Shown: positions 52,783 to 61,823 of the stretch, in pieces | Numbering within the stretch: the stretch's first letter is position 1 | How the letters are laid out: each line of letters begins with the position of its first letter | From: Candidatus Altimarinota bacterium | GTDB lineage: Bacteria > Patescibacteriota > Gracilibacteria > BD1-5 > UBA6164 | Reading direction: 5' to 3' | NCBI GenBank assembly: GCA_019454605.1 | Contig: JACFNZ010000002.1 | Coordinates: forward strand, 73,998 to 137,997 | DNA length: 64,000 nucleotides | Program-made: the position numbers and the translations under genes | The notes under the pieces: model-generated | Databases searched by the model: none | What the model saw: only the letters and a program-made list of their open reading frames with translations | What the model was told of the DNA's origin: nothing

Positions 52783-53220
52783 ATGATAAAAAAAATATTG
52801 TTAATAATTTCTTTTATTTTCATAACTTTTTCTTTTTGTTATTGAGTTTCTGCTTCTACTTGAAAAACAGAAAATCAAAGAAATGAAGATTGTTCTACCT
52901 CTTGAGATTGTATAGATAAAGAAACTTTTATGATAGATACTTCATTATATTCTCCTTGATGAAATTGATTAAAAAAGTGAGAATCAAAAGACACTATAAA
53001 TTTTGTTTTGTGAACTTTGATCCAAAAACTTATGATAGGTTTATGAATTATTGCTTTACTTATAATGACTATTTGAGCTTGATATATGATTTTGTATCAT
53101 TGAGAAGATGAGTTATTGTCTAAGTGAAAAAATATTTTTATAGCTTGAATTACTTCATTAGTAGTTGCTTTAAGTGCATATTATTTAATAAGTTTAGTTT
53201 GATATTTATTGTATAAATAA
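52783..53220 (+). CDS. T4SS-pilin-like membrane protein 1 (145 aa)
   Basis: Signal peptide-like N-terminus about 1-24, a polar stretch with two Cys (DCSTSGDC), then a first hydrophobic helix (about 84-108), the short basic turn GEDELLSKGKNI, and a second helix. This two-helix hairpin with an acidic-basic turn is the layout of the VirB2/T4SS-pilin-like family that is common in CPR genomes. First of four consecutive paralogous-looking genes. Confidence 0.7.
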
Positions 53221-53227
53221 AATTTTT

Positions 53228-53596
53228 ATGAAAAAAGTGTATTTTTTAATTTGATTTTTAAGTGTTTTAAATTTAAAAGTTTTTGCATCATCTCCAGAAG
53301 TGGTTTGTAATTGATTACCTTGATGTGAATGAGGAGCAACTTGAGAAGCTATAGCATCTTTAAAAGATTGAGATTTTTTTTCTTTTTTATGAAATATTAT
53401 AAGTGAATGAATTAAATATGTAGCTGTACTTGCTGTAATTTCTTTAATAATTTCTTGAATATTTTATTTAATTTCTATGTGAGAGGATGAAAAAGTAAAT
53501 AAAGCAAAAAAAATGATTATTTGGTCTTTAGTTTGAGTTTTACTTTCGACAAGTGCTTGGGCTATAATTAATATGTTAAATAATTTTAGAATATAA
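53228..53596 (+). CDS. T4SS-pilin-like membrane protein 2 (122 aa)
   Basis: Signal peptide about 1-20 (cleavage near VFAS), a Gly/Cys-containing linker (VCNGLPGCEGG), a first helix (GIKYVAVLAVISLIISGIFY), the turn SMGEDEKVNKAKKMIIW and a second helix (SLVGVLLSTSAWAIINML). The turn motif G-E-D-E-x-x-N-K-A-K-x-x-I-x-W is shared with protein 4. Starts 7 bases after the previous stop; same operon. Confidence 0.77.
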
Positions 53597-53607
53597 TTTT
53601 TTAAAAA

Positions 53608-53952
53608 ATGAATAAAATATTTTTATTTTTAATATCTTTTTTTTATACTTTTTTAGCTTCAGCTTCTTTAAAAGATTCTATGATGCCAAATTCAAATACT
53701 ATTTGAGTATCTTCTAATGGAACTTGAGTTATAAATGAAGTTTTAATTTCCTTTAAAGACTTACTTTTTTATTTTTTAGGTTTTATTGCTATTTGAGTTT
53801 TTTTATATTTTTGATTTAAATTAATTACTTCAAGATGAAATGAAGAAGAATTTAAAAAAACTTTAATGTGATTTGTGTATGCTGTTATTTGACTTGCTAT
53901 TATACCACTTGCTTATTGAGCTGTAAAATTAATAGCTTCTTTAAAAATTTAA
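53608..53952 (+). CDS. T4SS-pilin-like membrane protein 3 (114 aa)
   Basis: Signal peptide about 1-19, linker with SMMPNSN, first helix (LLFYFLGFIAIGVFLYFGFKLI), turn TSRGNEEEFKKTLMG, second helix (FVYAVIGLAIIPLAYGAVKLI). The turn keeps the acidic-then-basic character. It starts 11 bases after the previous stop and is followed by the fourth paralogue 11 bases later. Confidence 0.75.
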
Positions 53953-53963
53953 TTATAATAAAG

Positions 53964-54527
53964 ATGAAAAAAATATTTTTAATAACATTACTTTTTTTAA
54001 GTTTTTTAAACATTTCTTATGCTTATGAAACTGTTCAATATCAACCAACTTGAGATGATAATAATTCTCAAACAAATGATGCATGGGAGAGTAACTTTCC
54101 AACAACTGATACACAATCTTCTTGAGACCCAAATAGTCCAGATTTTGTTTGACCACCAGAGCCAAAGCAAGAAGGAGATAACAATAATTCTTGATGTAAT
54201 TATACTGATTGAGATAGTGTAGCAAAACTTTTAGACTGATGTAAACCTAAAAAAGTAGTTTCATCAACTGATATGAAGCTTGAAACTTGATTTAAGAAAA
54301 AAGTTAATTGATTTATTACAAACTTAATGGTTGTTTTATGAATTATAGCAGTTTGAGCTATAGTTTATGCTTGATGATTAATGCAATTTTCAGCTTGAGA
54401 AGATGAACAAATTAATAAAGCAAAAAATATAATAAAATGGACTATTATATGATTTTTACTTTTAATTTCAGCATCTTGAATAGTTTATATTGTAATCAAT
54501 GTAATGTTTTGATTATGATGAGGTTAA
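53964..54527 (+). CDS. T4SS-pilin-like membrane protein 4 (187 aa)
   Basis: Signal peptide about 1-20 (cleavage after AYA), then a long Asn/Gly/Ser/Asp-rich exported linker of about 90 residues with a Pro-rich PPEPKQEG motif and two Cys (SGCNYTDGD, LDGCKPKK). Two helices follow (NLMVVLGIIAVGAIVYAG and a later one) around the turn FSAGEDEQINKAKNIIKW, nearly identical to that of protein 2. The last in the pilin-like series; its 3' end overlaps the metallopeptidase gene. Confidence 0.78.
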
Positions 54528-55492
54528 AATGGTATATTTTTTTAAAATTTCTAAAAGACAATATTTATTATTTACTTTTTTTTGTTTATTTAACTATATT
54601 TACTATCTGAATTTATATATTAAATTATAAATATAATGAACCATATGATGTTTATATAGAAAAAAAAGAAGAAAATATAAAACAATTAGATAATTTATCA
54701 ACTAAAAATATAGAATTAAATTTAAAAAATTCTACTATAGAAGATAATTTAGTAAATATAGATAGTATTTCTAAAAAAGAATTAGAAGATTATCAAAGCT
54801 TTACTAAAGATTTATTAGACAAAATAGAAAAAAAAGAAAAAGAATTATATGATGGAAGTAAGATAAACTTTATATATAATCCTCAAATAATAGAAACAAA
54901 ATTATATAATAATGCATGAGTAAATGCTATTAATGCCTTAATTAATAGTAGTTTATTTAAAGATAAAAAACTAAATTTTGATTTAATTTTAAATTTTCAA
55001 AAAGATGCTGTTAGATGAAAATATAAAAATAAAACTATTAGTTTATATTCATTGGTTGATATAAAAGATAATGAATTACTAGCTGTTTTTATACATGAAT
55101 TAGGACATTATATCGATATAGATTTTTTACAAAAAAAAGTTTTAACTGATTTATCTAATAATTTTTATGATCTATCTTGGCAAAATACATATGAAATAAA
55201 AGCTGGGCTTTCAAAAACTGATTTTGTATCTTGATATGCTTTAACAAATAAATATGAAGACTTTGCTGAAAGTTTTTTATATTATGTTTTATTTAATTCT
55301 GATTTTAGAGAAAAATCATTAAAAAGTGATTTAATTAAACAAAAATATGATTTTTTTTCAAACTATATTTTTAAACAAGATGAATTTAAAAAAACAAACT
55401 TTAGAATAGAGTTTGATTTAAAGGATTATTATTGGGATATAACTAAAATAAATTTTTCTTTAAATAATTTTTTGCACTATTTAAAAAAATAA
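54515..55492 (+). CDS. Membrane-anchored metallopeptidase-like protein (325 aa)
   Basis: Frame set by HELGHYID near residue 194 (zinc motif HExxH, gluzincin-like). Two ATGs (54515, 54518) lie inside the end of the fourth pilin-like gene, an overlap of 10-13 bases that implies translational coupling. The N-terminus has a signal anchor at about 20-38. Residues 45-115 are charged and helical. The downstream EDFAESFLYYVLF may supply the third ligand (E/D). The family cannot be named with confidence. It could process the pilin-like proteins or act on the cell wall. Confidence 0.7.
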
Positions 55493-59680: not shown

Positions 59681-60436
59681 TTAAATATCAAAAATTATTT
59701 CTTCAAATTCTCAATCAAATCATCTATCAATTAAATTATAATAAAGCACTTTAGATAAAGTTTGAGATAAAACATGTTCATTTATTAAGCAATTTCTTAA
59801 AAAATCTACCTTATCAAAAGATAATTTATCTATAAAAATTGACATTGTGACTCATCTATTGATTCACTTAAACATAGCTTTTGTTTGTCAAGCTTCTCTT
59901 ATAGGTGGGATAAAAAATATTTTATCTTTTTGACTTTTATAATCACTTCATCTCCATATTAAATTTTCAATATTAACTGAAACTGTAACTAAAGGTATAG
60001 AAAAATCTACCTTAAAACAATTTATATCATCTCTTAAAAATCATAATGAAGTATAATAATTTTCTAAAATTTTTATTTCATCATCTAAAGTAATTCATAT
60101 TATATGGATTTTTTTATTATTTGATATAGCATAATCAAATAAATTTTTAAATATTTCTAGTTCATCTTTTTCACTATAAACATTGCTATACATAGCATAT
60201 TTATCTTTTATATTATTAAGTAATTGACTATTTTCTTTTTTTAATAATAAATCCTTTAAATAAAAAACCTCAATATCTTGACTTTTAAAACTACTATTTA
60301 AATATTTAAATAGTAGTTTATTATCAAATAAAGGAGTAGATTCTATATTTATTATTTTATTTTTTAAAACTTCTTTCATTTTTTTTAAATTAATATTAAA
60401 AAAAGTCTTTTTTAAAGACTTTTTTGTTTTATGCAT
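59681..60436 (-). CDS. Uncharacterised basic protein (251 aa)
   Basis: A highly charged N-terminal 40 residues (KKSLKKTFF, LKKMKEVLKNKI) followed by a mixed alpha/beta region (KKIHIIGITLDDEI, FSIPLVTVSVNIEN) and FIPPIREAGQTKAMFKGINRG. No signal peptide or known motif. Its ATG lies within the last codons of the preceding surface-protein gene (8-base overlap including that stop), showing translational coupling with it. Could serve the surface protein's assembly, but that is only contextual. Confidence 0.65.
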
Positions 60437-61823
60437 TTTTTCTTCTTACATACATTATTCAAGCTCAAGATAATAGTGCAATAATTAATATAGCTATTTC
60501 TTTAGGTCAAGTTTGAACTTTAGTCATATTTTGATTATCTCATTCTACATTACATACATCATCTTTAAATACTGCTTTTATAGTAAAATCACTATATTCA
60601 ACTTTATTTCAAGAAATTATTACTTCATATTTATTGTCTGTAACATTTTCTATCAATGTAAGTCAACTAGATGAAGCATCTTTTTTATATATATTATAGC
60701 TTGTTGCTTTATCTACCTTATCCCAAGAAATTACTGATTTTGTTTTTAATGATATTGATTTTACATTTTTAACTTCAAGTTCTTTTTTAAAATCATCACA
60801 ATTAACTGTTACTGGTTCTTCTTTTTTAACTTCCTCTACTCAAGCTAGATATTCGACTTCTTTAACTTTTATACTTGTAGCTGCTTCTTTTTTAGTTTCT
60901 AATCATAGTTCATTTTTTAGTATAACATCTATATTATATTCTCAAGCAGTTTTAGGTGTAGTTATTTCTCAAGAGTAAGTTCAAGATTTATTTTCAGTTA
61001 AAGTTGACAATACATCATTTACCATAACACTAACTGTTGTTAATCAAGGAGTAGCATCTACAGATACTCATACAACAGATTCACTATTGTATTCGTCACT
61101 TTCTGGATTTAAAGTAATACTTTTAAATACTGGAGTATTAGATTCTACTTTAAAGAAAGTTTCAGATGAAGTTCAAATTACTTTAGAGTCAGCATCAAGT
61201 AATTCAGCAACAATTATATTATCTCATGTTGGGATATCTTTTAGTTCTACTTCATAAACTCATTCTGAGTTACTTATTGTTTCAGTTCAAGTTCCACTAT
61301 TTAGTTTTATTCTAAGTTTATGATTTTTTGAAGTAGTCCCACTTACTTTTACACTATTTTGTCATAAGGTAATTCAATTTTCAGGATAATTTATAGTTAT
61401 ATCTCCAGAAGATTGAGCTGAGGTAGTTCAGTCTGTAACTTCTACTTCAGCATATCAATAAATATCTTCATTATTATAATCATAAACACTTATATCTTGA
61501 GTTCATTTTTGTGTAAATTTTACTCAGTTTTCAAATTTTACAACTCAAGCATCAGATGTTTTAAATTTATAAATTCAACTATCAATAGTACTTGGAAGTT
61601 CTGCTTTTTGGTCGCTATTTGAAAAAATTAAAACTTCTTTATCATAATCTTTTACAACAGCTCAATCTTTATCAACAGCTTTTATTGTAATATCAATTGA
61701 TTCTCAAATTTTTACTTTATTTGGAGATGCTTCTATTTCAAAATGATCTACAACTCAAGCAGCATAAACTGATGAAAATCATAAAGTTAAAAATAAAGAA
61801 ACAATAACTAAAAATTTATTCAT
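60429..61823 (-). CDS. Ig-like/fibronectin-like surface protein with C-terminal anchor (464 aa)
   Basis: Signal peptide about 1-21 (YAAG cleavage), then several beta-sandwich modules: bacterial Ig-like type (IEASPNKVKIGESIDITIKA; NYPENGITLGQNSVKVSGTT; SVVGVSVDATPG), a Lys/Glu linker, and a fibronectin-like module with VISWDKVDKATSYNIYKKD. The C-terminus is a membrane helix (EIAILIIALLSGAG) followed by VRRKN, a basic stop-transfer tail, without an LPXTG motif. Displayed on the surface, perhaps for attachment to the host cell. Confidence 0.83.

What the first reader, a model, noticed from the sequence alone, without database searches (positions are those of the whole stretch)
52783..55492. Four pilin-like paralogues plus a coupled metallopeptidase: a possible secretion or pilus system
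Four consecutive small exported proteins share one architecture: signal peptide, polar linker of varying length, two helices around an acidic-basic turn (GEDE..NKAK..I.W in at least two). This resembles VirB2/T4SS-pilin-like proteins. The fifth gene starts inside the fourth and encodes a membrane-anchored HELGH protein. Variation of the linker (up to about 90 residues in copy 4) suggests different exposed heads on a shared scaffold. CPR cells attach to hosts, and a system of this kind would fit; that last step is inference.
Basis: partly seen in the sequence, partly recalled or inferred. Interest (0 to 1): 0.72.

Follow-up and report, generated by a model that had tools for sequence, protein, structure and literature searches.

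The report
Four-pilin secretion array with coupled metallopeptidase
In this tiny, probably host-dependent bacterium, four different pilus-type proteins of a type IV secretion system are made together with a surface protein-cutting enzyme, in a gene order kept across a whole bacterial order; the pilins belong to a known kind, while the enzyme partnership appears undescribed and its job is untested.

Summary
Read with code 25 (TGA=Gly), 52783-55492 holds four exported two-helix proteins (P1-P4) and a membrane-anchored HELGH peptidase (P5) that overlaps P4 by 13 nt. P2, P3 and P4 pass Pfam's cut-off for T4SS_pilin (PF18895); P1 falls short but is homologous by profile comparison. The pilin reading is therefore supported.

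Each of P1-P4 forms its own clade in 38 of 38 loci, in fixed order. P5 is in 57 of 60 relatives and next to the pilins in 49. No VirB4/VirD4 lies nearby, but VirB4, VirD4, PrgI and other pilins are scattered elsewhere in the genome, as published for Gracilibacteria. P5 is a probably active zinc peptidase whose predicted fold is nearest the M34/Pro-Pro-endopeptidase group.

Best explanation: a hetero-oligomeric VirB2-like pilus array of the patescibacterial T4SS, co-expressed with a tethered peptidase that trims surface proteins. The substrate is unknown, and Pro-Pro motifs are not enriched in the pilins. The 'different heads' idea is weak here: the P4 extension is a predicted-disordered linker missing in most relatives. 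Multi-gene pilin arrays are published; four fixed orthologues plus a peptidase look like a new variant.

The parts
52783..53220 (+). P1: T4SS-pilin-like protein, position 1 (signal peptide, acidic linker, two-helix hairpin)
   Evidence: Table 25 ORF; PF18895 20.8 bits, below cut-off 26.6; P1-P2 profile probability 98.3%; own clade in 38/38 loci
53228..53596 (+). P2: T4SS pilin, position 2; Cys pair C.GLPGC in most relatives
   Evidence: PF18895 29.3 bits, over cut-off; 24/24 orthologues match at E<=1e-3; Cys counts
53608..53952 (+). P3: T4SS pilin, position 3 (GNPEEFKK-type loop, no Cys pair)
   Evidence: PF18895 28.9 bits, over cut-off; 24/24 orthologues
53964..54527 (+). P4: T4SS pilin, position 4; about 55-residue predicted-disordered linker before a conserved Cys pair (C78, C93)
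   Evidence: PF18895 35.3 bits and NCBIfam NF045849 42.8 bits, both over cut-off; 24/24 orthologues; helices 106-142 and 147-183 with disordered linker
54515..55492 (+). P5: membrane-anchored extracytoplasmic zinc metallopeptidase (N-terminal TM, helical stalk, catalytic domain about 115-325)
   Evidence: Peptidase_Mx 26.3 bits, just under cut-off 27; Mx/Mx1/ATLF hits in the family; AlphaFold pLDDT 89.5; fold matches
55094..55108 (+). HELGH zinc motif of P5 (H194, E195, H198)
   Evidence: H194, E195 and H198 invariant in 47/47 aligned members
55235..55270 (+). YALTNKYEDFAE segment of P5: Y241 and E248 (likely catalytic Tyr and third zinc ligand), E252
   Evidence: Y241, E248 and E252 invariant in 47/47 members; roles inferred from M34/PPEP enzymes

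Best explanation
P1-P4 are four non-interchangeable VirB2-like subunits of the Patescibacteria-type type IV secretion system. After signal-peptide removal each sits in the membrane as a helical hairpin, with its charged loop in the cytoplasm and both ends outside (inferred from sequence). The dispersed VirB4/PrgI machinery then extracts and stacks them, probably as one hetero-oligomeric pilus or surface extension (inferred). P5 is made from the same operon. It is tethered to the membrane with its zinc-peptidase domain held outside on a helical stalk, and most likely trims or releases surface proteins, such as pilin ectodomains or partner adhesins, to mature the structure or detach it (inferred, substrate unknown). 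Shown by computation: homology, fixed order, conservation, an intact catalytic site, co-presence of VirB4/VirD4/PrgI. Not shown: assembly, a pilus, the substrate, a host-contact role.
For: PF18895 over cut-off in P2-P4; Mbov_0395 pilin-like model over cut-off in P4. Profile homology P1-P2, P2-P4, P3-P4 at 98.3, 99.4 and 97.4%. Four clades, each holding 38/38 orthologues (support 0.67-0.94); order P1-P2-P3-P4-P5 with gaps of about 6-9 nt. Loop is rich in K/R while the C-tail is not and the ectodomain is acidic. VirB4-like ATPase in 59/60 relatives and PrgI in 56/60; own VirB4 over cut-off (347.7 vs 325 bits); own VirD4 and PrgI over Pfam cut-offs. P5 in 57/60, beside the P3 pilin in 49; catalytic residues invariant; [quoted passage not shown] A six-pilin array is essential for epibiotic growth in Southlakia (PMC10633639, PMC12857230).
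Against: P1 is below the PF18895 cut-off. No T4SS ATPase lies near the array. The pilin model has low overall confidence (pLDDT 68) and its fold search gave only generic hairpins. The array stays intact but unlinked from the peptidase in at least three genomes, and one genome (G044) keeps the array with no peptidase detected, so P5 is not strictly needed for the array. In most code-11 relatives the peptidase stands away from pilins. Pro-Pro motifs are at chance level in pilin ectodomains (16 seen, 17 expected).
Confidence: 0.55

Rival explanations
1. P1-P4 are T4SS pilins, but P5 is functionally separate: a general surface or housekeeping peptidase that shares the operon by inherited gene order.
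For: P5 stands away from pilins in most code-11 relatives, is unlinked in four of 57 genomes, and the array occurs without a detected P5 in G044. The downstream RNase J gene is also a stable neighbour, so linkage alone may be plain synteny.
Against: P4-P5 spacing is operon-like (median 6 nt), and linkage holds in 49 of 57 genomes across three families while flanking genes change.
Confidence: 0.3
2. The four proteins form a membrane channel or translocon part in the T4SS rather than an extended pilus.
For: VirB2-like pilins can act without an extracellular pilus (PMC12857230); most pilins here have short ectodomains; the same genome fuses three pilin units into single polypeptides next to VirD4, kept in 35/36 relatives, which suggests pilin units can serve as fixed membrane parts.
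Against: The cited literature favours pilus formation for pilin arrays; no direct evidence either way.
Confidence: 0.3
3. The array is a variable adhesive coat: paralogues with different exposed heads on a common scaffold, expanded for host specificity.
For: Ectodomain length varies: up to 533 residues before the core in P1 and 331 in P2 of one relative; a code-11 relative fuses a pilin unit to PKD domains; one P1 orthologue carries a peptidoglycan-binding match.
Against: The number and order of paralogues are fixed and each is an old orthologous group, unlike a variable repertoire; in this window the P4 extension is predicted disordered.
Confidence: 0.15
4. The peptidase is a released effector acting on host-cell proteins, with the pilins as its delivery device.
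For: Nearest folds include a secreted toxin peptidase as well as PPEPs; 9 of 47 family members match the ATLF Pfam model.
Against: P5 has an N-terminal membrane anchor and stalk in nearly all relatives; a shared fold shows no function.
Confidence: 0.08

Closest known systems
VirB2-like pilin arrays of Patescibacteria (PMC12102498), e.g. the essential six-pilin array of Southlakia epibionticum (PMC10633639)
   Same: Several divergent PF18895-type pilins in tandem; MPF_FATA-like VirB4, PrgI and TrsD-like parts in the genome; the paper also reports these scattered in Gracilibacteria
   Different: Exactly four fixed orthologous positions, far from VirB4, followed by a metallopeptidase; no peptidase partner for such an array outside the virB4 cluster was described in the papers read
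Pro-Pro endopeptidases (PPEP-1/Zmp1, MEROPS M34)
   Same: Predicted catalytic fold (Z about 9, rmsd 2.8-3 A over about 136 residues), HExxH plus Tyr and Glu seven residues apart (PPEP spacing from own knowledge), outside the membrane, encoded beside surface proteins
   Different: P5 is membrane-tethered on a stalk; PPEP-1 is secreted. Pro-Pro cleavage is not supported by the neighbouring pilins; no sequence match to any PDB chain
Conjugative pilins VirB2/TrbC/TraA
   Same: Signal peptide, two hydrophobic helices, charged loop, ends outside
   Different: PF04956 not over cut-off in any of the four; structural match not established

Membership tests
T4SS pilin (PF18895) | Sequence match over Pfam's curated cut-off | tested here: met
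   P2 29.3, P3 28.9, P4 35.3 bits against 26.6; P1 20.8, not over cut-off. All 24 orthologues of P2, P3, P4 match at E<=1e-3, 7/24 of P1
T4SS pilin (PF18895) | Signal peptide and two TM helices around a charged loop | tested here: met
   Hydropathy and charge pattern; helices 106-142 and 147-183 in P4. The signal peptide is judged from sequence, not by a dedicated predictor
VirB2/TrbC pilin (PF04956) | Match over Pfam cut-off | tested here: not met
   P1 17.9 and P4 10.4 bits against 27.9; P2 and P3 not listed
VirB2-type conjugative pilin | Fold of solved conjugative pili | tested here: inconclusive
   Fold search of the P4 model gave only generic helical hairpins
Patescibacterial type IV secretion system | VirB4 ATPase and VirB3/PrgI in the same genome | tested here: met
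   VirB4-like NF045971 347.7 bits over 325; PrgI 45.8 bits over 27; both outside the window, not adjacent to the array
Patescibacterial type IV secretion system | Assembly of P1-P4 by that VirB4 into a secretion apparatus or pilus | not testable with these tools
   Needs experiment
Zinc metallopeptidase, clan MA | HExxH plus third zinc ligand, invariant across the family | tested here: met
   H194, E195, H198, Y241, E248, E252 invariant in 47/47
M34 / Pro-Pro endopeptidase | Catalytic-domain fold | tested here: inconclusive
   Best matches are lethal-factor and PPEP chains, Z about 9-10.7, one Foldseek hit at E<=0.001; unrelated metallopeptidases score about 7-8, and no sequence match
M34 / Pro-Pro endopeptidase | Pro-Pro cleavage of a neighbouring surface protein | tested here: inconclusive
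   Pro-Pro at chance level in pilin ectodomains: 16 seen, 17.2 expected; activity itself not testable

The most novel reading that the evidence does not exclude
An order-wide, dedicated surface peptidase that processes or sheds a four-component T4SS pilus, giving host-dependent Gracilibacteria a built-in attach-and-release or pilus-maturation switch. No T4SS pilin array with such a peptidase was described in the papers found.
Probability: 0.25. Interest if true: 0.72.

Novelty: new variant of a known kind. Interest (0 to 1): 0.5.

Why it matters
T4SS pilin arrays are essential for epibiotic growth in the one patescibacterium tested, yet how they are built, and why several different pilins are needed, is unknown. 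An order-wide array with four old, fixed subunits argues for a defined hetero-oligomer, not variation for its own sake. A co-expressed surface peptidase supplies a concrete, testable candidate for how the structure is matured or released.

Tried and rejected
TrbC (PF04956) and TrbL_3 (PF19590) searches in the own genome found nothing; the TrbL_3 search also rang in no control genome, so it says nothing about absence. Fold search of the P4 pilin model was uninformative: no conjugative-pilus chain was listed among generic hairpins. The PPEP-like hypothesis that P5 cuts Pro-Pro bonds in the pilin linkers was tested and not supported. PDB sequence search with the P5 profile gave no hit at E<=0.01. 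A naive ORF picker missed some pilins in relatives and was replaced by profile searches. My code 11/25 assignment by ORF density is uncertain for GC-rich loci such as L088, L091, L103, L105.

Full report
WHAT IS THERE. The window uses TGA as glycine: ORF density in the window is 0.04 under table 11 and 0.91 under table 25, at about 21% GC. P1-P4 are exported proteins of 145, 122, 114 and 187 aa; each has a hydrophobic N-terminus, a polar stretch and two C-terminal hydrophobic helices around a charged loop. P5 (325 aa) starts 13 nt inside P4 and has an N-terminal membrane helix, a helical stalk and a HELGH domain. A divergent glycosyltransferase-like gene precedes the operon and an RNase J-like gene follows it (names from general knowledge of the sequences); no T4SS ATPase lies next to it.

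ARE THE FOUR PROTEINS PILINS? P2, P3 and P4 exceed the Pfam cut-off for T4SS_pilin (PF18895) and P4 also exceeds the NCBIfam cut-off for the Mbov_0395 pilin-like conjugal transfer family; P1 is below cut-off. Profile comparisons link P1-P2 (98.3%), P2-P4 (99.4%) and P3-P4 (97.4%). In 24-member orthologue sets, PF18895 matches all members of P2, P3 and P4 and 7 of P1. Across 38 loci the loop carries 2.4-4.5 K/R on average and the C-tail under one, with an acidic ectodomain, which fits a cytoplasmic loop and both ends outside. That topology matches published conjugative pilins, whose charged loop faces the lumen (PMC12037004); the placement here is inference. PF04956 (VirB2/TrbC) was not met. 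The AlphaFold model of P4 shows a helical hairpin with a disordered linker, but has low overall confidence and no informative fold match.

CONSERVATION. P5 is found in 57 of 60 relatives, almost always single copy. Comparing those coordinates by eye with the P3 pilin hits, the two lie within about 3 kb in 49; they are unlinked in four (G014, G022, G030, G033), separated by contig ends in three and undetermined in one. In G014, G022 and G030 the array is intact elsewhere in the order P1-P4; in G033 it is rearranged; G044 keeps a four-pilin array with no peptidase detected. Among 77 named loci, mostly labelled Candidatus Gracilibacteria, 38 loci including the window have four pilins upstream of P5 (33 scored P1-P2-P3-P4, five scored P2-P2-P3-P4), with median gaps of 6-9 nt. 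A tree of the pilin cores puts the 38 proteins of each position in one clade (support 0.85, 0.94, 0.94, 0.67). The four subunits are thus old and not interchangeable. In most code-11 relatives (labelled Peregrinibacteria, Peribacteria and others) the peptidase stands without pilins beside it. In a spread of 96 phylum genomes, the peptidase profile hits 4 of 7 genomes of the own class (own included) and one genome outside it, marginally, while pilin hits outside the order are weak.

THE PEPTIDASE. H194, E195, H198, Y241, E248 and E252 are invariant in 47 of 47 members, so the family looks catalytically intact. Pfam links it to Peptidase_Mx and Mx1, and 9 of 47 members to ATLF. The AlphaFold model is good (mean pLDDT 89.5). 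The best structural matches are the M34-type catalytic domain of lethal factor (Z about 10-10.7) and PPEP-1/PPEP-3 (Z about 8.4-9.1, rmsd 2.8-3.2 A, 136-141 residues); other metallopeptidases follow at 7-8, so the link is suggestive, not proof, and no PDB chain matched by sequence. PPEP-1 cuts an adhesin encoded next to it and releases it from the surface (PMC6447587). In one genome where the array has moved away, the peptidase instead sits beside two large surface proteins with SLH, LTD and weak PKD matches. These points favour a surface-protein substrate. Pro-Pro motifs are not enriched in the pilins, so a PPEP-like specificity is not supported.

THE REST OF THE MACHINE. The same genome carries a VirB4-like ATPase (C6), PrgI with a VirB4 N-terminal-like protein and one pilin (C3), VirD4 with pilin fusions (C3) and single pilins (C6, C7). 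VirB4-like and PrgI proteins occur in 59 and 56 of 60 relatives. Scattered T4SS genes in Gracilibacteria, and arrays of 2-11 VirB2-like pilins across Patescibacteria, are published (PMC12102498); an array of six is essential in Southlakia (PMC10633639, PMC12857230).

HEADS. The idea of different exposed heads has limited support. In this window the P4 extension is predicted disordered and is missing from P4 in most relatives. Large extensions exist in a few relatives: P1 with 533 and P2 with 331 residues before the core in L096, no Pfam family found in the extensions; one P1 orthologue with a peptidoglycan-binding match; and a pilin unit fused to PKD domains in a code-11 relative.

VERDICT. 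The pilin claim stands, as a member of a known kind. The fixed four-subunit order with a coupled peptidase is, as far as the searched papers show, undescribed; the library holds open-licence papers only. How the peptidase acts is inference.

Noticed in passing
L038:7016-12240 (own genome C3, minus strand): A VirD4-like gene is followed by two proteins (306 and 301 aa) that each fuse three PF18895 pilin units behind one signal peptide, then a single 177-aa pilin. The 301-aa fusion is found in 35 of 36 relatives searched.
   Followed up: partly
L039:8652-10565 and L043:4633-6124: VirB4 looks split: the ATPase part (637 aa) is on contig C6, while a VirB4 N-terminal-like protein sits with PrgI and a pilin on C3.
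   Followed up: partly
L096:3805-6938: In one relative P1 is 615 aa and P2 419 aa, with large N-terminal extensions that match no Pfam family.
   Followed up: partly
L112:1453-5672 and L113:554-6062: Code-11 relatives encode a pilin unit in proteins of about 900-1230 aa, with PKD repeats in the 1228-aa copy and in a neighbouring 735-aa protein, a few kb from the peptidase gene on the other strand.
   Followed up: partly
L069:1424-7743: Where the pilins have moved away, the peptidase gene follows two large exported proteins (1083 and 955 aa) with SLH, lamin-tail and weak PKD matches.
   Followed up: partly
L142:6683-11881: A genome without a detected peptidase encodes a 1732-aa protein with a pilin unit near residue 70.
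   Followed up: no
window 60429-61823 (-): A 464-aa exported protein with a C-terminal hydrophobic segment followed by RRK, looking like a surface-anchored protein near ribosomal genes.
   Followed up: no
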